DNA from: Saccoglossus kowalevskii
Lineage: Eukaryota; Hemichordata; Enteropneusta; Harrimaniidae
Direction: 5' to 3'
DNA: 50,868 nucleotides
Assembly (NCBI RefSeq): GCF_000003605.2
Contig: NW_003130356.1
Coordinates: forward strand, 789,373 to 840,240
Position 1 is the stretch's first letter. Every line of letters starts with the position of its first letter. This document shows, piece after piece, positions 986 through 50,868 of this stretch. The notes beneath the pieces were generated by a model. That model saw only the letters and a list, made by a program, of their open reading frames with translations. It had not been told where the DNA came from and searched no databases. The position numbers and the translations under genes are program-made.

Positions 986-2518
986 TGAGATCTTGCTCTG
1001 TGACCTGCATGAGGTAGTCGCCATCAATGCCACATCCTGTGAAGAAAGTGGATTCATCATTCTGTCACATGTAGTATAAACAAAGTCCTCTTAGATTTAC
1101 ACACACGTTGGAATCAAATGATATCTTACCCCATTACATACACACATTCCAAATATGCAGTAAAATACTTTATTTTAGCTGGAATTAATTTTCGCTGAAA
1201 AAAATTTTTGGGTGTTTTGTATGGAATTTATTTTCACAGATTTTTGATGAGTTGAATGTAAAATATAGGAAAAAAGTATATTCGCTGGATTTTATTTTCA
1301 CTGAATCATTCCTTCAGTGAAAATAGCAAAAATTAATTCCAAGCGAAAATGAAATATTGTACAGTAAAAGAAATACCATTAAAGTCAGTAGTCTCAGATA
1401 AATATTTCACTTGATTGCCATTCACAGTACGGTAATTAACTCCCATTGAAACCTGTCATAATCATCATTACATCATTAGTTTGCCAAAAAAAAATAATCA
1501 ACAGGCTTTTCCCAGCGACATAAATAGATAAAGACATCACATCAATTAGCATATTTATAATAAAATATGATCATAAAAAAATAATGAAATTAACAGAGTT
1601 ACAAACCCTAGTACAAAAAAAATTATGTTTTCACAATATATAGGACACATACATCTCCTGTGTAAAGATTGACATTATGTACTTGTCACATTATGTACGC
1701 AACACTATGATTACCATGTGAATACTAATATGGCTTCATATTGCGCATTGTTTGTATTCTGCCAATTCATATTTTCAACAATTGACGGACATTGAAGTAA
1801 AATGTGAAATTGAGAAAGCAACAGTTTACTAACAAGCAGCCTGTCGGCTACGACGAAGGACAATCACTCATATGATAAGCTCTGCTCGACAAAGTCGACA
1901 GCGGAGCTAATAAAAGTTTAATGGAACAATAACATTAGAATAGGAACACAGAGAAAACAGGTTTCTTATAAAAAAAAAAGTAAAATATTCTTTACCTTCA
2001 AAGATGTCTACAAAATAGTAGAGTCCGACAGACTGCAACCACTCCATAACATCATGATCATTCCATTCCTCAGGAGGGGTGACTTGCCAGCCACAGAATA
2101 CATTGTCTCTATCATCCTCTCCGGCACCTTGATAATGTCCATTTACAACACTTCGGCCATTGATAAGCGTTTGAAGAACAGAATTCACATCAGCGGAAGA
2201 CAGATTTTCATTGCTAGACTTAGCACTTGATGTTCTTGGTGGTGGTGGGGGTGCAGCTTTTTTCTTAGATGATGTTCTTCGCTGAACACCAGCCGTTGGA
2301 ACATTTGAGCTGGTATTACTGGCGCTACCTTCTGTGGAGCTATTACTATAAACACTTTGTGATCTACCAGTACCAGAATTTACATCGACTGACACTGTAG
2401 TTCCCTGAGTGTGTGAGGTCGGCAATGTCACATATACATTTTCAGCTGATAAACGAGTGGAATTGGCTCTTGGAGGAGGCTCTGGCTTTTTCTTCTTCTT
2501 TCGACTAAAGAATGGCAT
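986..2518 (-). CDS. SAM-domain protein, 5' coding exons (partial gene)
   Basis: Two minus-strand coding exons are visible: 2518-1996 (ATG at 2518, donor after GAAG at 1996) and 1036-986 (acceptor TTCTTCACAG, donor GTAAGT). Both junctions are phase 1 and the frame stays open. The first 174 residues start with a polybasic, proline-rich stretch (MPFFSRKKKKKPEPPP), followed by a Ser/Thr/Asn-rich low-complexity region and a second poly-Pro block (AAPPPPPR). A sterile alpha motif begins near residue 150 (EEWNDHDVMEWLQSVGLYY). The second exon continues it as CGIDGDYLMQVTEQDL, matching helices 2-4 of a SAM domain. SAM domains mediate protein-protein or RNA contacts; the basic N-terminus could bind membrane or nucleic acid, which is inference. 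The exact family (SASH, Caskin, SAMD or other) was not recognised. Further 3' exons lie left of the window or were missed. Confidence 0.8.
1158..1370. mobile_element. MITE-like inverted-repeat element
   Basis: Two arms are inverted copies: the left arm holds GCTGGAATTAATTTTCGCTG and the right arm reads the same on the other strand with small changes (GCTTGGAATTAATTTTTGCT). The centre is AT-rich and non-coding. It sits within the intron between the two SAM exons or their flank. No target-site duplication was settled. Confidence 0.55.
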
Positions 2519-2648
2519 TTTGTCGCTGGTTTGGCACTTAGAGTATTTTAATCTAAACTCGTGTATACTGTATCCTGAATCTTCACATCTCTATCACCAC
2601 ACTTATTGGCACAATCTGTTAGGTATGAATCCCACAACATACAGGCAT
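2519..2648 (-). other. 5' UTR part of the first SAM coding exon
   Basis: A good acceptor (TTATTTTTTGTAG, AG at 2650-2649 on the minus strand) precedes about 130 nt without a usable in-frame start before the ATG at 2518. This suggests the coding exon runs 2648-1996 and that at least one non-coding exon lies upstream. A short upstream ATG at the exon start hits a stop within ten codons. Confidence 0.4.
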
Positions 2649-5793: not shown

Positions 5794-5958
5794 CAGGGGA
5801 TAGCGCGTACGCAGTCCCCCACTAACATAAATTATGCGCCCGAGTCACCCACATTTGGGGTGATCGCAGGTGTCAGCCCAGCCGAAGTGCAATGGGAAGG
5901 CCTCTCCCTGAGGGAACCGCCTCCTTGATCACGGTTAACCCCTACGCCAGGTAAGTAT
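5794..5958 (-). ncRNA. U1 spliceosomal snRNA
   Basis: On the minus strand the sequence starts ATACTTACCTGGC, the U1 5' end that pairs with 5' splice sites, and ends CGCGCTATCCCCTG, the stem-loop IV 3' end. It is 165 nt long, against 164 for human U1. Stem-loop I, the U1A-binding loop (CATTGCACTTC), stem-loop III (CCCCAAATGTGGG) and the Sm-like site ATAATTTATGTTAGTGG are all in the right order. Stem III has paired changes relative to vertebrate U1 (TCACCC against GGGTGA), which argues for a functional gene. Stem-loop I reads GATCAAGGAG where the usual U1-70K loop is GATCANGAAG. A proximal sequence element should lie about 55 nt upstream (near 6010) but was not identified. Confidence 0.95.
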
Positions 5959-6808: not shown

Positions 6809-6947
6809 CAGGGGCGGATCTAGGATTCTGGAATAGGTGGGGGGGGGGGGGATAAGTTGGCCGAAGGCCAAGTTCGCGAGCGCCGATGGCGCGAAGCACT
6901 GTTGGTTGTTAAAAATAGGGGGCGGTCCCCCTCTAAATCCGCTCATG
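6809..6947. mobile_element. 139-bp MITE with 5-bp target duplication, copy 1
   Basis: The ends are CAGGGGCGGATCTAG and CTAAATCCGCTCATG (inverted), flanked on both sides by TGGTG (6804-6808 and 6948-6952). The interior has GATAAGTTGGCCGAAGGCC and a GCGAGCGCCGATGGCGCGAA inverted motif, shared with copies at 21778-21916 and 49273-49413. It is non-coding. A poly-G tract follows the left end. Confidence 0.85.
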
Positions 6948-8960: not shown

Positions 8961-9900
8961 GGTAAATAAGTCGTATGCGACAATATATTTAAACAACCTT
9001 ATGAGTATGTACATTTCATATCAGCGAGTTGAATTCTGAGATTTATATTCAGTTTTATTAGCATTTTAACCACTATTATAACAATGACTAAACCACATCG
9101 CCATATTGGATGGAGTCGATTGTATGCAAGATAGTGTGTTATGCAGATTCAACCCAAATAGAGTAATTAATCGTCAGATAGAGTGACAGCAATGATGTAA
9201 TGCAATGTCCAAATATGGCAATAGAATGTTAAACAAAAACTAAAAAACAAAAAAATGCATATACTCAGAGGTACATTACTTGGGGTTTGCAACTACGGTG
9301 ACATAGGCGTTCCAACTAGGATACTGGGATGTCCAGGTGGATCAAAATAGCTGTTCGCGATATGACGGATTACGATAACTATATTTTCTGTACATTTTCG
9401 ATGTATTACATTTTTTCGCTATGAATGTGGTAATACATGTTTTATTGTTTTATTACAAACCGCCTATGTCATGTCAGAAGGTCGTAGTATCAGTCTCGCT
9501 ATCTACGAGATGAGACTTGAATGGGATCTTGGCATGATGTCACCATACAGTACTATGCGCGTTGCAAACCCCAAGTAATGTACCTCTGATATACTAAACA
9601 TTTTTCTGATATTTCTAGAATCACTATAAAATAATATCAGATTTAAATCAAGCTTAGTGCATCCATGTATGTGATCTTGGATTACCACAGACTGCAAACC
9701 ACAAAATAATGTACAACCAATTTTATTCAGCTTTTTTTAAACTTTGAATTTTTTTATTAGTATTATAAACTTCAATAAAATCACGTTGTGCATTTCGAAG
9801 AGCAGATCTGTATTAGCATACAAACTTCTCAGTTAAAAAACTAATCTTACATAATACCTCCAGTACCCTCAGCTAACAGTAGTTCTTAAAAGAAAAAGAG

Positions 9901-10560
9901 ATAGTCGAGGTATGTTTAACCATCTCAGGAATTCATAGACCATTAGAAGACATTTCAAAATCAAATCTGAATGAGGAATTAAGAAACAGAGTGTTCACAT
10001 CGCTGGTAGGTCACAGAGCACTGGAGGATATAATGAAACCAGAATTATTAGAATGGAAACACATGTATAAATTAATGTTAAAAATGTCAATAGATTGTAA
10101 ATTACGAGAATTCCAATTTAAATTGTTACACGGAATCATTTATACAAATGAGAAACTCCATAAGATTAATCCAGTTAAGTTCTCCAATCAGATGTGCACC
10201 TTTTGTAACAAAGAAATAGAGAATATTCAACATTTATTCTATGATTGTGATTTCACAGTAGCCCTATGGAGAGACTTATTATTCTGTTGGGGAAAACCGT
10301 TAAAGTTACAAAAAATACCAAGTAAACTGTGTATGATCCTTTCCGACCCAAAGAAAATATTAACGGTTAATTTCATTTCACTGCTTGTCAGAAAACATAT
10401 ATATTTTTGCAAAATGAATGAAAAAAACAAACAAACTTCATGAGACTGACTCTATATATCAAAAGAGTATACCGGTCTGAGAGGTTTATTGAACAACAAA
10501 ATAACACTATGGTAAAACATCTGAAAAAATGGAATCTTCTACTGCTCTTTGTTAGATAGG
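9901..10560 (+). mobile_element. LINE fragment, L1/Tx1-type ORF2 C-terminus
   Basis: An open frame from about 9901 to the stop at 10441 encodes the reverse-transcriptase zinc-binding tail (zf-RVT) of L1/Tx1-like elements: helix-rich lead (EWKHMYKLMLK, REFQFKLLHGIIYTNEKLHK), then CTFCNKEIENIQHLFYDC (C-x2-C-x7-H-x4-C) and the usual ALWRDL. The frame is lost in an A-rich run near 10425. The next block (LYIKRVYRSERFIEQ, to about 10557) reads on in another frame, so the copy is both 5'-truncated and frameshifted. An AT-rich tail follows to about 10690. Confidence 0.75.
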
Positions 10561-16297: not shown

Positions 16298-19200
16298 TTA
16301 ATTTGAAGACAGCCACTTCTCCACTACGTCAGCCATCCAGAATATCAAATTTGGATCTCTTGTATCTTCAACCATTCTGCTTCCAATCATTGATATTTTT
16401 CCGTCTTTTATAATAAAAACATCTTCTAGGTAACAGTCATAGATACTGGCAAATGTATGTTCCATATCATCGCTAACGACGCGGATCTGTCGAGATTAAT
16501 TGCATATTAAGAGAACATTATACATTATGCGAGTCTAGGTGTTTTTTGATCAGGTATTTTTTCAACTGTAATCAGTAACAAATCCTACAGAGATTACATC
16601 TACAGTTATGGTTTGACTTAAAGAAAAAATAACTGAATAACGACATCGTTGACGACTTTTGAAAATGTGAACGCCATACAATTAATCGTCTCACAAGTTC
16701 TGTGATGTTGTATCTGGAACCTTTTGAAGTTTATCTAGTTAGGATATCGGTTTGATTTTGTACCCAGAATCTGTTCTACGTGTCAGAGGTCAGCATAAGC
16801 AGAAGGAAAATGAGATGAGTTTGGAGATTCGGTCACGATTTCAAAAGGCCGTAGGTTTTAGCTAAACTTCTAATTTCATAGCCAATGGTTCGAAAATAGT
16901 CACTAAACTAACTGTTTTGAGAACTGAGTTTATGGATTGCGGTATGACTGATTATTCCGCATTATACCCATCTTCGTAAAACCCGGCTTATTTAATTTGA
17001 GACACCTAGTGGTTACCGCAAAAACGCGGTGGTGATATACGTCTACAGTGAAATATTCAGTAGCTTGCAAAATGCAGAAATCAGCGTGTCTACCGTTAAC
17101 TACAAAGGACCAATCGGCCTGTACAAGTGCGCGGCCAATTCCCCCGTTCTAAGACAAGCGCCGATTGGTTACTGTCTTTCATAACAACTTACATGAATAA
17201 GCGAGTCATAGCAGGCCTTTACGTTGTATCTTAAGCGAGTGTAAGGAAAAAAAATACTTTGACGGGCGAAAATGTGCATACTGTAATACGACTGTTTTAT
17301 CACTGACTAAATCTCTATTAAACTCGCTCTCTAATACATAATAAGAATATTCAGGCATGCCAATTGGCTTCAGAGGTTTTCACGATGACATGTTCACAAT
17401 TCAAGCTGTTCCGCCGTCGAAGAGTCTACCTACAGAGGCTGCTCACAATGAAGCATCACGTACGCGATTTTAGTATTTACCATAGCGTGTCATTGTTTAC
17501 AAACAAGCGTCTACCCATGAGCCTTTGTGTTTTAGCGTGTGTTGTTATCGTCGCTTGGGACTCAATTCCTGCGCGTGCGCAGGTGACGACCCTGAGGCTC
17601 CCGCTTTAAATAGAACTCCAAGCCATCACAATACATATGCGATATATCAGTTCTATATCATTCAGTTGTAGGATGGACAAACATTCCATAGTCTACAATA
17701 GAGGACGAATATGGTGCGTGAATATGACGTTGTTTTAATGTCTATTGATATCGGTATTGATATTCGTACGTGTATCTTGTTGTAGGATGGACAAACATTC
17801 CAAAGTCTACAATAGAGGACGAATATGGTAAGTTAATATGACGTTGTTTTAATGTCTATTGATATCGGTATTGTTATTCGTACGTGTATCTTGTTAAATA
17901 TTTATTATACTTTGTTGAAATCCTTCTATGACTATTGAGTTTAGATTAATGGATGTGTATGTCGAAGCTTTTTAAATATAACTCTCTTATCAGAATAATT
18001 TCAACTAAAAAAAGTTCAGAAAGAAGTCCCGTGTGGCGACAGTATGTGAGATATATTTGAAATTAACGCGCAATTTAATATTAGTTTAGCGCTTAGCGAC
18101 TAATGTTAGTTTGCTATAGTCAATGTGATCCACATCATTGAAATGTATAATAATAATTATAGGCCCCTTAGAGCCTCTATTTCATTGAAATGTGATAATT
18201 ATGAATATTATGCAAATTAGGTAATTGATATGTCCGAACTTCAACCTGAAACTAATCAGGTCCGTGTATTGTGCTTTACGGCACTTACAATAAGACAATG
18301 TCGAATATTTATGCACCTAGATTCATTTGAATACGATGATGACTACTTAAATTATTAATGGAAAACCTGAAAACTGGCTTATTATTATGCAAGTTTGGTA
18401 ATTAATATGTCTTTGCATTGTCCTAGAGTACCTATGTACCAAGTTTCAATGAAATGTGATGATTAGGATTTGAGACATCTGTAGAAATCCTACAATTGAC
18501 TAAATATTACGCAAATTGGGTAATTATTATGTGCAGCCAGAAACTAATAATATCTGCGTATCATCACAGACTCCCAGGTCTGTGCATCATCTCAAAGTAT
18601 ATATGTAAATAAATTCATTAGTTGTCATTGAAAACATTTAATTCAATAAGTACAATAATTCAATTTACCTTATCAGCATCATCAATGTCTATTGTAGCGA
18701 CGTCTTCGGTCTCTGTATTGACAGCATCCACCAAGAGCTTTGCAGCATCTATCTTCTCCTGAATGGTTTTGTGCTGAGGTATCATACTTTCACCCAAGGT
18801 TATTCCATCTGATGGATGAGCCTCTAGCTGGTAGACGATCAGAAACTCTGCCTTCTCCTTATAAACATTATAAAGGGATGCGAGCCTACCCTGGTTAACA
18901 AAAAACTTTACAAATGTTCAAAAATTAATTAGTATCAAATAAAAGTTGAAATGAAAAACAAAATTTGAATATATATTTCAATGAGAACATAAATGTGTAG
19001 AATATACAATCAATAACAAAATCTTGAATTTATTTACTCCAGGGGGTCGATGTAGTACTTTCCAAACAATCAGGAAAGATTGTTGATTGACATTGGGCAC
19101 CTAAAGAAATACACAAATACTTAAAACGACGATATTGACAGACTACTTACCGACATGAAGGGTCAGCTCCACGATGAGGAAAATATTACCAGCGGTTTTG

Positions 19201-21475: not shown

Positions 21476-21777
21476 TCTACGCGATACTGCAGAAGTTCTC
21501 AGTTTTCATCGCGTCGAGTGAACATTCATCCGTGGTTCGCAGGATTCTGGAAAGGGCTATTCGGAATTAATCAAGAAGTCCATTAAAAAGGTGCTAGTCA
21601 CCTTTGTGAACTTTCAACCTTAATTAATCGAAGATAACGTCTGTTAGGACACCGCCTCATCTACTCAACGCCAAGTCATTGACACAGTTACCGTTCATAA
21701 ATATTACGGATGATGAACACTATGACCCTTATTATGATGTCATTCAGCGACGACACAACGCAACCCCCTGCCACAGA

Positions 21778-21916
21778 CAGGGGCGGATCTAGGATTCTGG
21801 AATAGGGGGGCCGATAAGTTGGCCGAAGGCCTAGTTTGCGAGCGCCGATGGCGCGAAGCCCTTACGGGGGTAAAATAGGAGGGCGGTCCCCTCGGCCCCC
21901 TCTAATTCCGCCCCTG
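21778..21916. mobile_element. 139-bp MITE with 5-bp target duplication, copy 2
   Basis: The ends are CAGGGGCGGATCTAG and CTAATTCCGCCCCTG, perfectly inverted over the last nine bases, flanked by ACAGA on both sides (21773-21777 and 21917-21921). It has the same length and interior as the copy at 6809-6947. Confidence 0.9.
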
Positions 21917-33099: not shown

Positions 33100-34436
33100 A
33101 TTATTATTATTTATTTCAGAAAGAGTCCATATAAAGTAAATTACAAAACAAAAAGAGAAAATGAAATAGAGTTACTGTTTATAATAAAATACAGTCATTA
33201 GGTTTATGCTACAAAATCAAAAAATCTAATTATTCCAGTACCACACCAACTGTGAGTTCCAACGTATGTCACTACTATATATTACAGAGCCTGACAACGC
33301 CATTAGTAGATGTATAAACGCGTTCAGTAAATAAAGATACTAGCTTTCTATTAAGACAAGGGAATGTTTGTACTCTATTAACAACACACATTGTACTGAC
33401 ACTACAATCATGTGGATATCCAAACAATTTCCTGAAAGCATTGTTATAGGAAACCCTCATGGTATTAAACGTAGACTTTCGAAAACAACACCATAATTGA
33501 CAGCAATAAAAACTGGAACAGTAAGTTTTGAAAAGACATTGCTTAACCTCAGTGCTACAGTTCACAAATTTTCCCAACAAGAGATTAGCACGAACACAAA
33601 ACAAACGTCTCTGGTCAGTGGTTATTTTTGACCAGCTGACACGCGTATTTCTATTAATACCATAGTTATTATTAGTTGTGGTTGTAACCATGTTCATAGC
33701 TCGACAGGTAATCGACATGGGCATATGATCGGACGCAACGTAGTCGTAACATATATTAATGTCTGTAATTGACCGATGCGCGCTTACACTAGAAATACAA
33801 TGATCTAACCAAGAGGTAGTCTTATGTGCTTCATTCAGGTACGTAAAATTATCATCAGAGTTGCCGAGAAATTCAAGATTAGAAATGAGTAACTCTTCCT
33901 CGTTACAAAGCTCGCGTAGCTCACTACAATAACGTGAGTACGACCGCGGATCTGTATTCCAGTCCCCTATCACAAAGACGTTTGGAGTATCGACCTCCTG
34001 GATAATGGCATTTATTTTACCAAGGTAGTCAACATATTCGTCTTGGTTCTCAACACTGTAGGTCGGGAGGTACACACTCAAGATAAACAGTTTGCTAATT
34101 CTCTCCAAAAGTAATTTCTGCGCCAAGAAGTCTGGGATCGTTCAGTGGCTTAATCTTTAGCGAACTTCCTATTGTTTTACTCCAAAGAATAGCTGTCCCT
34201 CCGAAGGGACGTCCCAGGAGGATGTCAGTACTTGTGTCGACAGCAGAAACGCCATATGCATAGAAGTCATTGTGAATAGCAGATACAAATTCAAGATCAT
34301 CCTTGACGAGCCAGTGTTCTTGTAGAAGACAAATGTCGTGCTTATCGCAGAGTTCGGTGACAATCGGTCTACTATTTTTAACCGATCTACAGTTATAAGT
34401 TACAATTTTAAAATCTGACATAAGAAAGTTATTCAC
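33100..34436 (-). mobile_element. CR1-like LINE, internally deleted
   Basis: The minus strand opens at 34436 with an apurinic endonuclease domain: FKIVTYNCRSVKNS, LLQEHWL, VIGDWNTD and SDHMP. The frame shifts once near 34110. After residues for the start of the RT region (VSWSKITTDQRR) the text jumps directly to the ORF2 C-terminus (CLFKTYCSSFYCCQLWC, RVSYNNAFRKLFGYPHDC), so nearly all of the reverse transcriptase is deleted. The 3' tail ends in a TGGACTCTTTCTGAAATAAA-type CR1 terminus and ATT repeats at about 33100. It separates the Gypsy integrase relic from Gypsy RT sequence. Confidence 0.85.
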
Positions 34437-34779
34437 GACGCGGATAATACTTGCGTACTAAAACTCCTTCGGGACAAGCACTTGCGTTCATGATTGGCTG
34501 AAAGTTGGATGCAGTTGTTGTTATGCAAAACGAGGCATAAGTGTCAATAGGATAGCTAAGGCACTATAGTTGTTTGATCGCGCAAAGAAGAAAGGACGAT
34601 ATCCAAAATTGCATATGAGATGGCTCAGCCCTAGTTTAATAACATGGAGTATATCCTAGGTTGTATTGGTATATTGAATACAGCGCAGTGAAATCTAAAA
34701 CTGTGTCTCACTATGACAGTATGTAGTCATATGAAGGTAAACCTCTTGGTAAGCTGGTTGGATTCTGAACTGGTAGGCG

Positions 34780-35165
34780 AAATGGCGACCTCATTGAAAA
34801 TGCATAGTATATATCTAACATACAGACCGCCGAGTATCCAATATGTAAAGGTCGCCACACTGCTTTATATTGTTCTAATACTAATAACAAATTGTCTGGA
34901 TTCACTTGGTTTAGAAAATCCTAAATATTTTACAATGCTTGACATAAAAAAGTAGATTTATATCCAGATAGCCGCGAGTAGACAACTTTTAAATAATTTG
35001 GCGTAATTGCCAATATAATCGACCTGGATGTGTTCGGAAGCAGATACCTTTTTTATGATTTTGTTTATTTAAGGGCTACAATTGGAAATTTACCTGGATG
35101 ATACACCGTTTTTTGAGCAGTTTCAGAAACTCGCAGCAAACGGTTTATTTCCAGGACGCCGAGTG
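34780..35165 (+). mobile_element. Ty3/Gypsy reverse transcriptase relic
   Basis: The plus strand has NCLDSLGLENPKYFTMLDIK (34890-34950), the Gypsy RT block just before the first catalytic Asp, and EIYLDDTPFFEQF (about 35085-35125), the YLDD catalytic box. Stops interrupt the text between them. It lies downstream of the integrase relic, the reverse of RT-then-integrase order, so it belongs to another copy or the locus is rearranged. Confidence 0.65.
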
Positions 35166-36290
35166 TAACGTTTAACCTTGAGACGTTTGATACTTAGTGC
35201 AGCCTGTTGAGGAATCTATTTATCATATCATCAGCTAACAGCTGTGTAAAATTAAATAATGCTACGCAAGTTATTGGTCGAATAATACATCACTAAACGA
35301 GGTTCTATTTCTATGAATAATCGAAGAAGATGGTGACGAACATAAATCGACATTCAAGATATTGAGTTCAAAACATATAATAAAAACAACTGCGCAATAA
35401 ATTGAATGAAACAGAAACTACGACTTAAATCTGTCATTGGCAAGGTATCCTGCATACATGTAATTCATATCACATTGAAATCTAACAAATAAAATGCATG
35501 CTCGGTGGATGCACGATCACCATGTTGTGCCTAAAGCTAAAGGGTGTGTCCGCTCTGTAAAAAAAACGTGTATTTTGCTCTTTATTTATGTCGCTCTAAT
35601 GTTTAATAAAATAACGTCTTAGAAACATTTATTATAGCAATGAAATGAATATAAAACGGTTAATTTTCTTTTTGAGGTTGGGACATCATCGCGATGGTAT
35701 GCGTTGTTCACAAAAGTGTTGTACGTAAAGAACATCGTTATATTTTTAGTACAAGTTGGGCGAGTCAAATTCGAGTAAAATCATAAAAAGTTCGACAGAT
35801 GTGACTTTCCTTTAGAGTGGAAATATATAGCTATTGGCCAACAGGAATTGTACAAATCATTGCAAAATAATTGTTAGCATGAGTTTTTCGTTGTGAACAC
35901 ATTTTCTCTCTCATATGTTCTGTTTCTCTCGCATTCTCACTCTTTTTCAATTTACAAGTTGTACAATGATGTTTTTCATAATTTCTCTCATACAGATAAA
36001 AAATGTAAAATATTATGTTCGTGCGTGCATGGTCCTTGTTTTCAGACGTTACATTCGAATACGACCTTCTTACATATTCACGAGATTTTTTAAAATGTAC
36101 AAGCAATAACACGTGTAAGTTCTACTGTAATGTACTGTGATTGATAAACAGTTTTTAATTATCAAGTAAAAAGCTTTATTCGGATAAGAAATTTAAATTG
36201 CACTGTGACTTCAATCATATTTAAATTTAATTACTTCGTAAACATTGTTAAAGTTGTAAATACCACACAGAACGTATGCAAGTGAAGAAC
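35127..36290 (-). repeat. Duplicated unit 1 of the secreted-protein cluster
   Basis: This block aligns with 36878-38030 and 38036-39300 over about 1.1 kb (for example ATTGGTCGAATAATACATCA, GCATGCTCGGTGGATGCACG, AATTGTACAAATCATTGCAAA). Unlike the other two it lacks the signal-peptide exon: sequence corresponding to about 37495-37630 is cleanly missing at 35750, while the CCAAT-region promoter block (35830-35870) remains. Confidence 0.85.
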
Positions 36291-36292
36291 AG

Positions 36293-36293
36293 A

Positions 36294-36392
<99 letters not shown>

Positions 36393-36394
36393 AT
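36293..36394. repeat. (ATAA)n microsatellite
   Basis: About 25 uninterrupted ATAA units over 102 bp. A shorter array of the same unit sits at 39311-39342, in the same place relative to exon 2 of the secreted-protein family, so the microsatellite was duplicated with the gene and then expanded. Confidence 0.97.
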
Positions 36395-36409
36395 TAGGTG
36401 ATATATTCC

Positions 36410-36610
36410 ATCACTACATTCAACATCATTAACATAATCCGAGCGACACTAAACGATACTAGTCTCTCACATCATCGTCCCGGCAACGTCTTGATTATCA
36501 GTACGTTGTGCTTCATCAGCGTCATCAAACCGCTCATGTTGATCGGCAGCTTGTTGACCAATAGGCTGAATGCTGTCGTTATGGATATACTGCTTGGTGA
36601 TATTTCCATA
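36410..36610 (-). pseudogene. Broken exon 2 of the secreted acidic protein family
   Basis: The minus strand reads HNDSIQPIGQQAADQHERFD, close to the intact exon at 39411-39698, but upstream the frame runs into Gypsy RT sequence (a YLDD box on the opposite strand at about 36625-36660) and the acidic tail degenerates. The 5' half of the exon is therefore lost. Confidence 0.65.
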
Positions 36611-36614
36611 GTGT

Positions 36615-36690
36615 TGGTTACATTGGAAGTTTACCTTGATGATATCACGGTTTTTGAGCACGTTTGAAAACACATTCTGTTCAACCCTGT
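36615..36690 (+). mobile_element. Gypsy RT YLDD fragment
   Basis: LEVYLDDITVFEHV is the catalytic box of Gypsy reverse transcriptase and matches the fragment at 35085-35125. It is now joined to a decayed exon of the secreted-protein family. Confidence 0.5.
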
Positions 36691-36877
36691 TTGTAGCTTC
36701 ACTGAAATACCAAATTTACGTCTATAATACGACCTCTTTGCAGATGAATATTTAATTTGTGAAATTAGAACAACTTGCTAGCCCAACAGTGTAAATTCAA
36801 TTCATAGTAAGAGGCGGTAAGCATGCTCATCGCGAAACAACGATGCTATGCATTCGAACATGATATTACATACATCA

Positions 36878-38030
36878 GAAACTCACAGCAAACGGTTTAT
36901 TTCCAGGACACCGAGTGTAGCGTTCAACCCTGAGACGTTTGATACCTGTTGAGGAATATATTCATCATATTATCAGCTGACAACTGTATACAATTATATA
37001 ATATAACGCAAGTTATTGGTCGAATAATACATCACTAAAAGGGGTTCTATTTCTATGAATTATCGAAGAAGATGGTGACGAACATAAATCGACATTTAAG
37101 ATATTGAGTTCAAAACAAAATAATAAAAACAATTGCGCAATAAGTTCAATGAAACAGAAACTATGACTTAAATCTGCCATTGACAAGGTATCCTGCATAC
37201 ATGTAATTCATATGACAGTGAAATCTAACAATTAAAATGCATGCTTGGTGGATGCACGATCACCATGTTGTGCCTAAAGCTAAAGGGTGTGTCCGCTATG
37301 TAAAACATGTGTACTGTGCTCTTTATTTATGTCGCACTAATGTTTAATAACGTCTTAGAAACATTTATTATAGCAATGAAATGAATATAAAACGGTTAGT
37401 TTACTTTTTGAGACCGGGACATCATCGCGGTGGTTTGCGTTGTTCACAAAAGTGTTGTACATATAAAACATCGTTATATTTGTAGTACAGGTTCTGTCTA
37501 AATGGTGCTTATCGATAAATCTGTATGCCCTTCGTCACCGTCTCCGCCACTCTCAGCTGGGACCATCGATCCATACCATAGCAATAACGATGCCGATAAT
37601 CAGCGCTGCTGTCCGGACATACATTATGGTGATTGGGCGAGTCAAATTCGAGTAAAATCATTAAAAGTTAGACAGATGTGACTTTTCTTTAGAGTGAAAA
37701 TATATAGCTATTGACAAACAGGAATTGTACAAGTCATTGCAAACTAATTTCACAACACATTTTTTAGTGTGTGTTTTTCGTTGTGAACACATTTTCTCTC
37801 TCAGATGTTCTGTTTCTCTCGCATTCTCACTCCTTTTCAATTTACGAGTTGTACAATGTTGTTTCATAATTTTCCATACAGATAAAAAGTTGGTAAAATA
37901 TTATGTTCGTGCGTGCATGGTCCATGTTTTCAAACGTTATGTTCGGATACGGCCATCTTCCATGTTCACGAGGTTTTTTAAAATTCACACGTCATAACAC
38001 GTGTAAGTTCTACTATAATGTACTGTGATT
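36878..38030 (-). repeat. Duplicated unit 2, with broken signal-peptide exon
   Basis: Second copy of the ~1.1-kb unit. It contains a former exon 1 (37624 to about 37500) with an intact signal-peptide start (MYVRTAALIIGIVIAMVW). A deletion after the cleavage region throws PAESGGDG-type sequence out of frame, and a TGA follows. The donor CCGGTAAG is also changed. Confidence 0.75.
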
Positions 38031-38035
38031 GAAAA

Positions 38036-39300
38036 ACGTTAGTGCAGACGTTAGTGCAGCCTGTTGAGGAATATATTCATCATATCACCAGCTAACAGCT
38101 GTGTAAAATTAAATAATGTAACGCAAGTTATTGGTCGAATAATACATCACTAAACGGGGTTCTATTTCTATGAATAATCAAAGAAGATGGTGACGAACAT
38201 AAATCGACATTTAAGATATTGAGTTCAAAACAAAAGAATAAAAACAATTGCGCAATAAGTTGAATGAAACAGAAACTATGACTTAAATCTGTCATTGACA
38301 AGGTATCCTGCATACATGTAATTCATATGACAGTGAAATCTAACAAATAAAATGCATGCTTGGTGGATGCACGATCACCATGTTGTGCCTAAAGCTAAAG
38401 GGTGTGTTCGCTGTGAAAAAACACGTGTACTTCGCTCTTTATTTATGTCGCACTAATGTTTAATAACGTCTTAGAAACATTTATTATAGCAATGAAATGA
38501 ATATAAAACGGTTAGTTTACTTTTTGAGGTCGGGACTTCATCGCGATGGTATGCGTTGTTCACAAAAGTGTTGTACGTATAGAACATCGTTATATTTTTA
38601 GTACATGTGCTGTCTGAATGGCGCTTAATATCGGCAAATCTGTATGCCCTTCGTCACCGTTTCCGCCACCCTCAGCTGGGACCATCGGTGCTTACCATAG
38701 CAATAACGATGTCGATAATCAGCGCTTCTGCCCGGACATACATTATGGTGATTGGGCGAGTCAAATTCGAGTAAAATCATAAAAAGTTAGACAGATGTGA
38801 CTTTTCTTTAGAGTGAAAATATATAGCTATTGGCCAACAGGAATTGTACAAATCATTGCAAAATAATTTCACAACACATTTTTTAGCGTGAGTTTTTCGT
38901 TGTGAACACATTTTCTCTCTCAGATGTTCTGTTTCTCTCGCATTCTCACTCCTTTTCTATTTACGAGTTGTGCAATGGTGTTTTATAATTTCTCAAACAA
39001 ATAAAAAGTCGTAAAATATTATGTTCTTATGTCCACGGTTCATGTTTTCAGACGTTACGTTCGGTTACGGCCATCTTACATATTCACGAGAATGTTTAAA
39101 ATTTACACGCAATAACACGTGTAAGTTCTACTATAATGTACTGTGATTGATAAACAGTTTTTAATTATCAGGAAAAAAGCTTTATTCGGATAAGAAACGC
39201 ACTGTCGTACGTACTGCACTGTCACTTTAAGCATATTTAATCTCAATTACTTCGTAAACATTGCTAAAGTTGTAAATACCACAGAACGTAAGAAAGTGAA
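38036..39300 (-). repeat. Duplicated unit 3, with broken signal-peptide exon
   Basis: Third copy of the unit. Exon 1 (38743 to about 38620) carries the same deletion and TGA as unit 2 and has CCGATA instead of the CCGGTA donor. Units 2 and 3 therefore derive from an already broken parent. The promoter block (TATTGGCCAACAGGAATTGT, about 38829) is kept. Confidence 0.75.
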
Positions 39301-39310
39301 AAACAGATAG

Positions 39311-39342
39311 ATAAATAAATAAATAAATAAATAAATAAATAT
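39311..39342. repeat. Short (ATAA)n microsatellite
   Basis: About eight ATAA units just past the stop codon of the gene at 39411-40264 (minus sense), homologous in position to the longer array at 36293. Confidence 0.85.
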
Positions 39343-39410
39343 GCATAAATTAAATGATATATTCCCTCACTACATTCAACATCCTTAACATAATCCAACA
39401 CTAAACGATA

Positions 39411-40264
39411 CTAGTCTCTCTCGTCACCGTCCGCGTCAACGTCTTGATCAGCAGGACGTTGTGCTCCGACAGCGTCGTCAAACCGCTCATGTTGATCTGC
39501 AGCTTGTTGACCAATAGGCTGAACGCTGTCGTTGTGGGTGTTCTGCTGGACGATGTCTTCACTATTTTTCATAGAGTTGGTTACATTCGATTTCAACCAG
39601 TGTCCTGGCTTGATTTGCGGTAGGTCACGAAAAATTTCGCTCAATTCGCTGAAATTTAGCATCTTCGCTCGTGTCTCTTCCGGAATAACGAATGTTAACT
39701 GGAAATGAAATAGTTTCAAGCGGATTTACATCTACAGAAGGGAGTTAAGAGAATGGGCTAATTTCGAAATATCCCTGAATGGCCTCAATGTAAGGAAAAC
39801 GACAACGTTCAATAACTATACAATTTAAATTTACTATCGAATATAAAATAACAAACGTTTATCGCTAAGGATGGAAATTGCCAAAAGACGATAAGGTGCT
39901 CCAATGTAAAAAGAAAAGTGCGCTTTCTGGTGGACGAAACCTCTGTCAAGGTAAGACAGTTTCATTTATTTGCGCTTTGGTAACACGTGGGCAATAGAAC
40001 GTATTCGCACCCCAAAAAGGCTCTTGCGCAATGTATCTCACCCCAGATTTTGTCTGAACAAACGCGTTATGAGCACATTGCAATTGATCCGACATGTCCA
40101 TGTGATTGTCGTTATTTTAGTGTTAAGTTTTTTGTGCTTACCGGCAAAGATTTTTGTCTCGCTTCGTTACCGTCTCGTGCACCCTGAGCTGGGACCGGCA
40201 ACTCATCGGCCCACACCATCACACTACCGATTCCTATAACCAACATAACGGCCCGGATATACAT
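39411..40264 (-). CDS. Small secreted acidic protein, family member B
   Basis: Two minus-strand exons: 40264-40142 (41 codons, donor CCG|GTAAGC) and 39698-39411 (95 codons plus TAG, acceptor TTTCCAG), phase 0, 443-bp intron, 136 residues. Exon 1 is a signal peptide (MYIRAVMLVIGIGSVMVWA) with a likely cut before DELPVPAQG. Exon 2 has a conserved IPEET start, a middle block (SDLPQI-type, HWLKSNVTNS with a possible N-glycosylation site), the family block SVQPIGQQAADQHERFDD and an acidic Asp-rich tail ending ADGDERD. There are no cysteines in the mature part. It is not recognised as any known family; a secreted, largely disordered acidic protein, perhaps a propeptide, is inference. A CCAAT box lies about 100 bp upstream of the ATG, as in the neighbour at 42046-43034. 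Confidence 0.65.
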
Positions 40265-45285: not shown

Positions 45286-47952
45286 CTAGTCGTTGAAACT
45301 TTTTCGTCGGGCCACCGGTCTTCTCATCTGCTGAAGTAAAATCATGTTCACATGTTCGATGGACTGATTCACCATCACCTGCATACTCTCTGAAAACGGG
45401 TCAGCTGAAAATACGAAATTCGCCCCTTTTCGATGAAATAGGCCCTCCGTTTTCTGTATCAGGCAATCGGCTCGCACCTCACTGTCCGAAATATTCAGAA
45501 ACCTCGTGATTTCAAACATTGTTCGTTGGGTGTTCTCTAACGCGTCTTCGTAGTGGATAACCAGCCGAGGAAAGTCGCGTAGCAACCACAAGGTAGTGAT
45601 ACCTTCCCAATATTGCAGATAATCATTAACCATGGCGTTCCATCCTAAATAAAACAAATCGTATGGGGTGATCATTAGAAACACTGAGAGGAAGATGATA
45701 AATAGCTGGGCAAATATTTTTTCTGGAGGGAAATGTTTTGGTTACGATGGTAATGTTGGTTTTAAATAACACTTAATTACCATTCATTCTTAAAGCGCCA
45801 TGGTCGTCGATCCACGTCCTGTTCGATATGGGTCCCATGCGATGTATACAATGCTTGTAAAATATACAAAATTGTTGCGCTTTAAAGGGCGGTTGTCGTC
45901 GAGCGCGTTCATACTTATATCGAACACCACGTAGCGCGGTAACTACCACATTTAAGATATTGAGTATAGTCACCGACGTTAGATAGAATGAGATACAAAA
46001 TTGAACACTTACTCACCCCCAGAATCCGTGAAATCGACTTCCTTCGCAAAGCCCACGTGACCTCCACCAGTCTGCCGGTGACGCTCTGAAATAATGGCGT
46101 CGTAAGGGTTCCTGATAATTAATATAGCGGCGTCAAACTTATCGACGTGCTCACTGTCTGTTTCATGTGTTTTAACGACGATGGTATTTCTCTCGAGCCA
46201 ATCGTATTTTTCACCTCGAAACCCTGAAAAATAGCAAACACAGTGCGATTAGTTTGTTTATTTAATAAACCCCCATGTGGGTTTCACAGGGAACCTGTGT
46301 GCCATGTTTGAAGTTCCTATCTATTATCGCTTGTAGCTCAATATAAACGCATACTAATCTTTGACCTCAAAATGTGATAAGGTCTTGTGAATCTGTCAGG
46401 GAACATGTGTGATAATTTTGATAGCACTGGCCAATTTCGTTTTTCTTATGTACATGTAGTTATATTATAAACACATGCTGTGAACTTGAACGTAATGGTT
46501 AAAGCGCGGTAGTCGTCACGCTGCGCCTGTGCGACATTTGTGTTGATAAAGATTGATTTTCCCATAATCCAATGCGTTCTTCAAATTGAAATCACAAGTA
46601 TGAGGTTTGATATTGGCGCGACTTGCACTGAATACCGCTGGTGACTCCTTCGATACCTTTCAAGTCACCTAATTAAAACTTGAAACGTCTCAGTTTGTAC
46701 TCGTTGATCTGCGCAACAGTCAAAGTCGCAATCTTTTTTTTATATGAGACCCGTATATCTCGCGCATGCGTGGCGCGACGACTAGCGCCCTTTAAATGAT
46801 GGCGATCGTCCCACAACACGTGCTCGAATTTGTAAACAAACAATGTATTTTGCACGTTATGAATCGAACAGAACGCGACGACGTGTAGTGTGAAATATCG
46901 CCCTCGGCGGCCGAGGTGATTATTTTCTCAGACTTGCAGGCAGTTCGATTTCCACAGGAAATTAGCGAATCCAGCGTCACGTCAACTTTGTTAAAAAAAC
47001 AAGTAAAAGTAATGCTATACAGCAATGTTACTGGTGACAGCATTAAACAATTGTGCTTGCGGTGCCGCTATATATCTACATTACCTGCACGAAAAAGAAC
47101 CGCGTCCGAATAAAAACTCCCAGTGTAATAACCAGTAACTCTTTCGATTAAATATCTGATCCATGTGTTGCCAGAGCCAGGGAAACTTGCTAGCGCCACC
47201 AACGGTCGACTTCCTGGTGCGATCAACGTCTTTGTTTCGCAAATGTCAATGTTTGCTGAAATGTGATATACACAACTATATTAGGTCGACACAAACGCTG
47301 TTAGCTAGATAGATTGCTCATGTTTTATGTATGGGCGTCAGCTTGCTGAATTGACCCCTCTCCTTGGTGTGTCAGCTGGCAGCGGACACGCAATATCAAC
47401 AAATTAGTTTACACTATACCCACTAACACGGAGCTGTCATATTAATAATAATAAGGTACACATATTAAAATAGACATATCAATTCTGAAATTGTTTCGCT
47501 ACAATTACGTCGGGGGATTGTCGATAAACGAGTTGAGACCCGATGCTAGCAGTTTTCAACAGCAGACAAACAGCTTGAGATCTACACCTAATACTTACAC
47601 AACAGGCGTGCATCTTCCGGAAATTGGGTGTAATCTTTTTTTTTTATAATACTCTCTAGTCTGCCCGAGCACACCCCATACTTAATTGCATCGGGTTATA
47701 TTAACGATTGAAGTGTGCTCAGTATGTAATACTATTAAAGTAAGTTGACATAAATAAAATATATATATATATAAACAACAACCCATTATATTCACCCTTA
47801 CATTTCACGTCGCGTCCAGGCGTATAGGCAAGAATATTAACGTCCTCAACGAGCTCCGTGGAAAAGAGGAATGCGGTTATTATCCAAGCTGTAACAGTCA
47901 CAACTGAAATTATTGCCGAGCGTCGTATCATTCGCGTGCAACATCGTCTCAT
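45286..47952 (-). CDS. Type II membrane sulfotransferase, WSCD/CG9164-like
   Basis: Four minus-strand exons joined in phase 1: 47952-47802, 47255-47085, 46223-46017 and 45644-45286 (TAG), 295 residues. Residues 1-12 are basic and cytosolic ([12 protein letters not shown]), then one membrane helix ([19 protein letters not shown]), then the lumenal part. The PAPS 5'-phosphosulfate loop is [20 protein letters not shown], followed by GYYTGSFY; the 3'-phosphate site is [15 protein letters not shown], preceded by VVKTHE and followed by [16 protein letters not shown] and MFEITRFL follow. These are the signature blocks of the WSCD/CG9164 branch of Golgi sulfotransferases. The WSC domains found in vertebrate WSCD1/2 are absent, as in the short fly form. 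The acceptor substrate is unknown. An alternative exon 1 donor six bases farther (47796) would also keep the frame. A MITE sits in intron 2. Confidence 0.9.
46499..46795. mobile_element. TTAA-flanked MITE, family B, copy 2
   Basis: 297 bp bounded by TTAA (46499-46502 and 46792-46795). The inverted ends are AGCGCGGTAGTCGTCACGC and GCGCGACGACTAGCGCCCT. It lies within intron 2 of the sulfotransferase gene. Its ends resemble those of family A (GTCGTCAC), suggesting a common transposase. Confidence 0.85.
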
Positions 47953-49270: not shown

Positions 49271-49272
49271 CA

Positions 49273-49413
49273 CAGGGGCGGATCTAGAATTCTAGAATAG
49301 GGGGGCCGATAAGTTGGCCTAAGGCCAAGTTCGCGAGCGCCGATGGCGCGAAGCCCTGTTGGTTGTTAAAAATAGGGGGGAGGGCCCTCGGCCCCCATCT
49401 AAATCCGCCAATG
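49273..49413. mobile_element. 141-bp MITE with 5-bp target duplication, copy 3
   Basis: Starts CAGGGGCGGATCTAG and ends AAATCCGCCAATG, with GACCA on both sides (49268-49272 and 49414-49418). The interior matches the copies at 6809 and 21778. Confidence 0.85.
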
Positions 49414-49737
49414 GACCAAAATGTTTGTATTTGCGCGATGAAAAATGCATGTGTGATAACTCACTTCTTCCGGGAAATCGGTCTACGCCCTCTGTCGAGT
49501 GTGACATAAATCCTGTGCGGTCACCGACAGAGGGCGCCGTTCAGACGATGGTTATGATGGTATCTACTCGTATTTGTCCCCAGTCTCCATCTCAGGCTAA
49601 TAATCTATTATTAGTGTGAACCTGTTATTCTCGGGAGCGAGCATCGGGCTTTTTCCCCGGCTGGCAACCACAATCGGTGAAACACCCTAAAAAATTATAC
49701 TTTCAGTTTGTTGAGACTCTCTTTAACAATGTAAAAC

Positions 49738-50285
49738 CACCCTGACACTTGCACGACTTTTGGCCACGATTTTGTCGTGGCAAGTCGTGCCATTTTGGGG
49801 TACGAACTGGGAGGCTGCCGCACTGTTCACGACTAGTTCACGACGAGTTGACGACGAGTTCACGTATAGTTCACGAATGCGTGCCCATCAGTGTCCACAT
49901 TGACACGAACTGGCACGACAAGTTAACGCATGGTTTGCGTATATTTTACGCACTTCCCGCATTGGCACGACGAGATTACGCAATTCGGACGTGAGCTGTT
50001 TGTGAACTATTCGTGGCAGTTCGTGACAGTCGTGGTATGGCGCGCACTGACACGCATCCTCCCGCATCTTCCCGACGAGTCACGAACAGTTTGCGCATAG
50101 TTCACGACCCGGTCGCGAAATTTTGTCGCGACCAGAATTTTGATCATTTCAAAATTCTCGTCCCGACATGGCACGCAGTCACGACGGGTTTACGCACACT
50201 TCACGCCAGTTTACGACTACTCTGCGCACTGGCACGACTCGAGTCGGGCCAATGCGTGCCACAGAATCGTGCAAGTGTCAGAGTG
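49738..50285. mobile_element. Foldback, CACTA-like non-autonomous element
   Basis: Inverted ends: CACCCTGACACTTGCACGA on the left and TCGTGCAAGTGTCAGAGTG on the right. The interior is packed with short degenerate copies of motifs such as GTTCACGA, GTTTACGC and GGCACGAC on both strands. Subterminal arrays of this kind are typical of EnSpm/CACTA elements. GC content is far above the surroundings. Open frames inside (up to 110 codons) are a by-product of the repeats. Confidence 0.7.
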
Positions 50286-50628
50286 GCTTAACAAGATAAC
50301 TCCTACATGTGCAACATATATACATTTGATTGTTCAGGATAGCCTCATAGTTGAGTTTATGCTGTTTTATGGATTAAAGCTGTATCGGCTGGCTTTCCAC
50401 AGCAGTTCTTACAGAGCCCATACAATACATGGTACAGCGGTGTATGTCAAAGCAACACAAAACGTTCTGTGACGGTAGTTGCTAAAAAAATTCGGGTTGG
50501 GACTTTGCTTCTTCATAAGTGGTGGTGCATCGTTTACGTTAGAGCTCCTAAATTTGGCGGAATTTGAGACACGATCGGTAGGATCTGGCAACGTCCCCTT
50601 TTAACGAGGTACATAGTGACATGTTTTG

Positions 50629-50868
50629 ATGATGGGTGTGGATGTGATTACCTATAGAATAAGAATAGCCAGATCTAGTGGCGGGAAACTGAGTAAAGGT
50701 GACGGTACTTTCGCCATATTGGCAGTGATCTACTGTTCTCTATTGTTATGTGGCAAAACAACATTAGCAGTTCGGACATGCCTATTCTGTCTCTTAGTAA
50801 TTGGTAATGTGGAAATGAACCCTGGTCCAAATTATGGTGACTCGGATGAGGTCGGTGGGGGTACACGC
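50629..50868 (+). CDS. Start of ORF with 2A-like skipping motif (partial, runs off edge)
   Basis: ATG ATG at 50629 opens a frame still open at the window end (80 codons). Residues 25-58 are mostly hydrophobic in two stretches (TFAILAVIYCSLLLC and VRTCLFCLLVIG) and run straight into NVEMNPGP (residues 60-67). That is the 2A-like consensus D-V/I-E-x-N-P-G-P with Asn in place of the first Asp. At 2A sites the ribosome omits the Gly-Pro bond, here G66/P67, releasing an upstream 66-residue peptide. N-terminal 2A motifs joined to signal-like sequence are known in CR1-type non-LTR retrotransposons and NLR-like genes of sea urchins and relatives. Which of these follows cannot be seen. Earlier in-frame codons were not traced for a longer start. 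Confidence 0.7.
   Translation, partial: MMGVDVITYRIRIARSSGGKLSKGDGTFAILAVIYCSLLLCGKTTLAVRTCLFCLLVIGNVEMNPGPNYGDSDEVGGGTR

What the first reader, a model, noticed from the sequence alone, without database searches (positions are those of the whole stretch)
50629..50868. 2A-like ribosome-skipping motif after a signal-like N-terminus, with Asn for the first Asp
LLVIGNVEMNPGP ends a hydrophobic N-terminal region. In known 2A sequences the residue two before Glu is Asp; here it is Asn, which may lower skipping. Partial skipping would give two products with different targeting: a free signal-like peptide plus cytosolic protein, or an uncleaved form sent to the secretory path.
Basis: partly seen in the sequence, partly recalled or inferred. 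Interest (0 to 1): 0.7.

Follow-up and report, generated by a model that had tools for sequence, protein, structure and literature searches.

The report
2A-like ribosome-skipping motif, Asn variant
The last bases of this animal-like DNA window encode a short leader ending in a peptide that probably makes ribosomes skip one peptide bond; such leaders, and this Asn variant of the motif, are already described, so it looks like one more case of a known kind.

Summary
The motif is real. GNVEMNPGP is encoded at 50803-50829 (+), the only NPGP in six frames of the window. By base composition the expanded StopGo core is expected 1.2e-4 times per window. It ends a leader of 65 or 66 residues with two hydrophobic stretches, in a frame open from 50620 to the window's end. 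Only 14 residues follow the skip site, so the downstream protein is unseen.

A 2026 survey puts the core at (D/G/C/N)(V/I)ExNPGP and reports above 95% activity for a natural Asn example; it also says that Asn put into foreign 2As was only modestly active. The dual-targeting idea was published in 2016 for sea-urchin NOD-like receptors.

Most likely this starts a non-LTR retrotransposon protein, less likely a host NLR-type gene. I could not decide: one scan of viral contigs and one of PDB sequences gave no relative, and the own-genome search did not complete. New member of a known kind; low interest.

The parts
50620..50868 (+). Open frame of 83 codons that carries the motif and runs off the window; preceded by an in-frame stop at 50617-50619
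50629..50634 (+). Two tandem ATG codons (50629, 50632). The second has A at -3 and G at +4, a good start context; the first has T at -3 and A at +4
   Evidence: for the bases; which one is used, if either, is inference
50710..50754 (+). First hydrophobic stretch, residues 28-42 (FAILAVIYCSLLLCG), after a basic N-terminal part (R10, R12, R15, K20, K23)
   Evidence: Kyte-Doolittle profile and charge list
50764..50802 (+). Second hydrophobic stretch, residues 46-58 (LAVRTCLFCLLVI), directly upstream of the motif; the hexapeptide before the core is CLLVIG
50803..50829 (+). GNVEMNPGP: Gly plus the StopGo core octapeptide N-V-E-M-N-P-G-P; predicted skip between codons 50824-50826 (Gly) and 50827-50829 (Pro)
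   Evidence: core definition from PMC12846837
50827..50868 (+). The 14 residues visible downstream of the skip site (PNYGDSDEVGGGTR); too short to identify the protein
   Evidence: the 81-codon reading has no Pfam match near a cut-off

Best explanation
A genuine StopGo (2A-like) recoding peptide ends an N-terminal leader of 65 or 66 residues, most likely at the start of a protein of an animal non-LTR retrotransposon. While the leader sits in the exit tunnel, NVEMNPG holds the ribosome so that the Gly-Pro bond is not made; the leader is released and translation goes on from Pro. Shown: the motif, the frame, the two hydrophobic stretches. Inferred: that the frame is translated, that skipping occurs, that it is efficient despite Asn, and that the downstream protein is a retrotransposon's. 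With 30-40 residues in the tunnel, both hydrophobic stretches (24-38 and 8-20 residues before the skip site) would be still inside or just at its mouth when the skip is decided, so skipping would come before targeting, and only unskipped chains could use the leader as a signal or anchor.
For: Motif match far beyond chance. Core NVEMNPGP fits (D/G/C/N)(V/I)ExNPGP, and a natural Asn example was above 95% active. Leu-rich upstream sequence ending in Gly resembles the L-rich upstream classes. Reported cellular hosts of such motifs are non-LTR retrotransposons and NOD-like receptors (title of Odon 2013). The window carries other non-LTR retrotransposon pieces (zf-RVT at 9883-10440, endonuclease at 33278-34457). 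Tunnel length of 30-40 residues: PMC2978324.
Against: No relative was found in the two collections searched, neither of which is an animal genome set. No endonuclease or reverse transcriptase is seen after the motif, since the window ends. The residue before the Gly is Ile, not the A/S/C given for the L-rich classes, and Met at p15 is not among the favoured residues listed. Asn put into a foreign 2A context was only modestly active. The endonuclease fragment in this window has no NPGP near it, so it does not show a 2A-bearing family here.
Confidence: 0.55

Rival explanations
1. First exon of a host gene, for example a NOD-like receptor, in which partial skipping splits the product between cytosol and secretory path, as in the sea urchin.
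For: Published precedent: 14 of 87 S. purpuratus NLR entries carry a 26-residue N-terminal 2A, 12 of those 14 predicted as signal sequences, and one was tested (about 80% recoding; more secretion when inactivated). The leader here is hydrophobic with a basic start.
Against: The leader here is 65 or 66 residues, not 26, and its first hydrophobic stretch starts at residue 28. No NLR domain is visible in the window next to it, and the one Pfam row for this frame is far below its cut-off.
Confidence: 0.22
2. A decayed or 5' fragment of a retrotransposon: the motif is a relic that is no longer translated.
For: The window is rich in broken repeats and retrotransposon pieces; a repeat with inverted ends stops at 50293, a few hundred bases upstream.
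Against: The motif, an ATG in good context and the open frame are intact as far as the window reaches.
Confidence: 0.18
3. Chance match in non-coding DNA.
For: A stop-free stretch of this length is common here (59 of at least 80 residues), and so is such hydrophobicity (7 of 59, this one included). Both matches to a similar DNA pattern in viral contigs (2 of 2) looked unrelated to an L-rich 2A leader, so the pattern does arise elsewhere.
Against: Expected 1.2e-4 per window for the expanded core and 4.4e-6 with the preceding Gly, and it falls at the expected place behind Leu-rich sequence.
Confidence: 0.05

Closest known systems
N-terminal 2A-like signal sequences of Strongylocentrotus purpuratus NOD-like receptors (Roulston et al. 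2016, PMC4981915; named sections read)
   Different: Their leader is 26 residues; here 65 or 66. Downstream NLR not seen here. The paper searched with the Asp form of the core; its Table 1 sequences were not shown to me
[quoted passage not shown] 2013; not held, only the title seen in reference lists)
   Same: Animal-like genome with retrotransposon pieces; 2A-like core
   Different: No endonuclease or reverse transcriptase is seen after this motif; the comparison with their sequences could not be made
Natural p12 = Asn StopGo variants of RNA viruses (Li et al. 2026, PMC12846837; abstract, sections 9, 10, 14 and passages read)
   Same: Asn at the first core position, then (V/I)ExNPGP
   Different: Those are in viral polyproteins; this lies in an animal-like genome and no activity was measured

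Membership tests
StopGo / 2A-like recoding peptide | Core octapeptide (D/G/C/N)(V/I)ExNPGP | tested here: met
   NVEMNPGP at 50806-50829; definition
StopGo / 2A-like recoding peptide | Suitable upstream context; L-rich classes end in (A/S/C)G before the core | tested here: inconclusive
   CLLVIG: Leu-rich and ends in Gly, but Ile precedes the Gly; 28% of sequences in that survey were unclassified
StopGo / 2A-like recoding peptide | Skipping activity in translation | not testable with these tools
   needs a reporter assay
Dual-targeting 2A signal sequence (sea-urchin NLR type) | N-terminal leader of about 26 residues that acts as a signal sequence | tested here: inconclusive
   65 or 66 residues, first hydrophobic stretch at residue 28; no signal-peptide predictor was run
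Dual-targeting 2A signal sequence (sea-urchin NLR type) | NLR domains (DEATH, NACHT, LRR) downstream | not testable with these tools
   window ends 14 residues after the skip site; own-genome search not answered
Non-LTR retrotransposon with 2A | Endonuclease and reverse transcriptase in frame downstream | not testable with these tools
   same limit; the endonuclease and zf-RVT pieces in the window lie elsewhere

The most novel reading that the evidence does not exclude
A host animal gene, not a transposon, uses a natural Asn-type StopGo leader, longer than the sea-urchin ones, as a tuned switch between a cytosolic and a membrane-anchored or secreted form.
Probability: 0.08. Interest if true: 0.55.

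Novelty: new member of a known kind. Interest (0 to 1): 0.22.

Why it matters
If it is active, it adds an animal-genome example of the rare Asn form of the StopGo core, which the 2026 survey drew from RNA-virus sequences. That would help to tell whether rare core variants are tuned for partial skipping or simply work. The kind of system and the targeting idea are already in print.

Tried and rejected
Relatives: one scan of viral contigs with the 80-residue frame (28 pattern matches, none a relative by tblastn), one PDB sequence search (2 rows, E 3.6 and 4, not meaningful), one Pfam scan (one row, TMEM52, E 0.22, far below its cut-off). None of these collections holds animal genomes, so the absence says little.

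A degenerate DNA pattern for G(D/N/S-type codon)(V/I)ExNPGP in viral contigs gave 2 loci. Both read Asp at the first core position: GDIEVNPGP before a GPT-repeat stretch in L001, GDIESNPGP without a Leu-rich leader in L002. Neither helps.

No second copy of 50294-50868 or of the frame was found in the window: self-blastn gave only itself, tblastn only itself plus three rows at E 7.4 to 9.6.

Rejected: 'Asn is outside known 2As'. Rejected as evidence: length and hydrophobicity of the frame taken alone.

Papers: Odon 2013 and Rao 2025 are not held; only their titles were seen. PMC8623073 gave no passage for my five terms.

Full report
What is there. The + strand from the ATG at 50629 reads an 80-codon frame to the last base of the window. 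The frame is open from 50620, after a stop at 50617-50619 and further in-frame stops just upstream. So, unless an upstream exon is spliced on, the protein starts at 50629 or 50632. The second ATG has A at -3 and G at +4; the first has T and A. The motif GNVEMNPGP lies at 50803-50829, with the predicted skip between Gly 66 and Pro 67 counted from the first ATG.

Is it more than chance? It is the only NPGP in six frames of 50,868 bases. In 60 simulated windows NPGP appeared 0.15 times per window and ExNPGP never. By base composition the expanded core is expected 1.2e-4 times per window and 4.4e-6 with the Gly before it. These numbers do not allow for the other motifs a reader might have picked. 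The frame itself is not remarkable: 59 stop-free stretches of at least 80 residues exist in the window, and 7 of the 59, this one included, have an 11-residue stretch as hydrophobic. The case therefore rests on the motif and its place.

The Asn. Li et al. 2026 (PMC12846837; abstract, sections 9, 10, 14 and passages read) found G as common as D there, and C and N also over-represented, among 2,465 octapeptides from RNA viruses. They expanded the core to (D/G/C/N)(V/I)ExNPGP. Natural examples with rare residues, Asn among them, were about 90% active or better in reticulocyte lysate, and those with C, N or V at this position above 95%. They also note that D12N was only modestly active when put into a foreign 2A. 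So Asn does not predict weak skipping in a native context, and it does not exclude it.

The upstream part. The six residues before the core are CLLVIG. They resemble the L-rich classes, which end in (A/S/C)G, except for Ile before the Gly; those classes go mostly with Asp and Ser in the core, not Asn and Met. That paper leaves 28% of its sequences unclassified. The context is thus plausible, not proven.

Targeting. Here the leader is 65 or 66 residues and its first hydrophobic stretch begins at residue 28. With 30-40 residues in the exit tunnel (PMC2978324) both hydrophobic stretches are inside it or at its mouth when the skip is decided. I infer that skipping would be decided before targeting, and that an unskipped chain could be anchored or exported. 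The same paper reports that engagement of the translocon by an upstream signal can inhibit 2A, a further reason why a lysate assay alone would not settle the split in cells.

Whose protein is it? Reported non-viral hosts of such motifs are non-LTR retrotransposons and sea-urchin NLRs. Only 14 residues follow the skip site, so neither can be recognised. The window carries other non-LTR pieces (zf-RVT at 9883-10440, E 2.2e-10; endonuclease matches at 33278-34141, E 2.6e-7, and 34098-34457, E 1.7e-4), which makes a retrotransposon the more likely owner. These pieces lie far away and show no NPGP. One scan of viral contigs and one of PDB sequences found no relative, and the own-genome search did not complete in 8 tries. 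I put the retrotransposon reading at 0.55, an NLR-type host gene at 0.22, a relic at 0.18 and chance at 0.05.

Verdict. Real motif, known kind. The new element would be an animal-genome Asn example, if it is active. Odon 2013 and Rao 2025, the two papers most likely to list similar animal cases, could not be read, so I make no claim that this one is unpublished.

Noticed in passing
window 5794-5958 (-): Full-length U1 spliceosomal RNA match, 143 bits, E 1.8e-36; the only Rfam match at gathering threshold in the window.
   Followed up: no
window 49730-50293: Element of about 560 bases with 39-base inverted ends, 79% complementary, and an internal array of 11-base units (GTTCACGACGA); the outer flanks read TAAA and TTAA, perhaps an imperfect TTAA target duplication.
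   Followed up: partly
window 18663-18917 (-): Exon-like piece of an iodothyronine deiodinase (Pfam T4_deiodinase, E 8.6e-11; PDB 4tr3, E 1.2e-7). A simple motif search for the active-site exon on the minus strand found nothing.
   Followed up: partly
window 33278-34457 (-): Endonuclease part of a non-LTR retrotransposon in two overlapping frames.
   Followed up: no
window 9883-10440 (+): C-terminal zf-RVT piece of a retrotransposon, E 2.2e-10.
   Followed up: no
window 35123-39590: Large nearby duplications, for example 36945-38037 against 38060-39155 at 92.5% over 1,097 bases; a perfect ATAA array at 36293-36394.
   Followed up: no
window 6809-6942, 21777-21912, 49272-49409: Short dispersed repeat of about 140 bases in three copies, 83-87% alike.
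   Followed up: no
window 45289-45741 (-) and 1910-2590 (-): Weak sulfotransferase match (E 0.01, below cut-off) and a SAM-domain match just under its cut-off (E 6.8e-4), probably exons of host genes. Of 104 stop-free stretches of at least 70 residues, 16 were scanned with Pfam, besides the motif frame itself.
   Followed up: no
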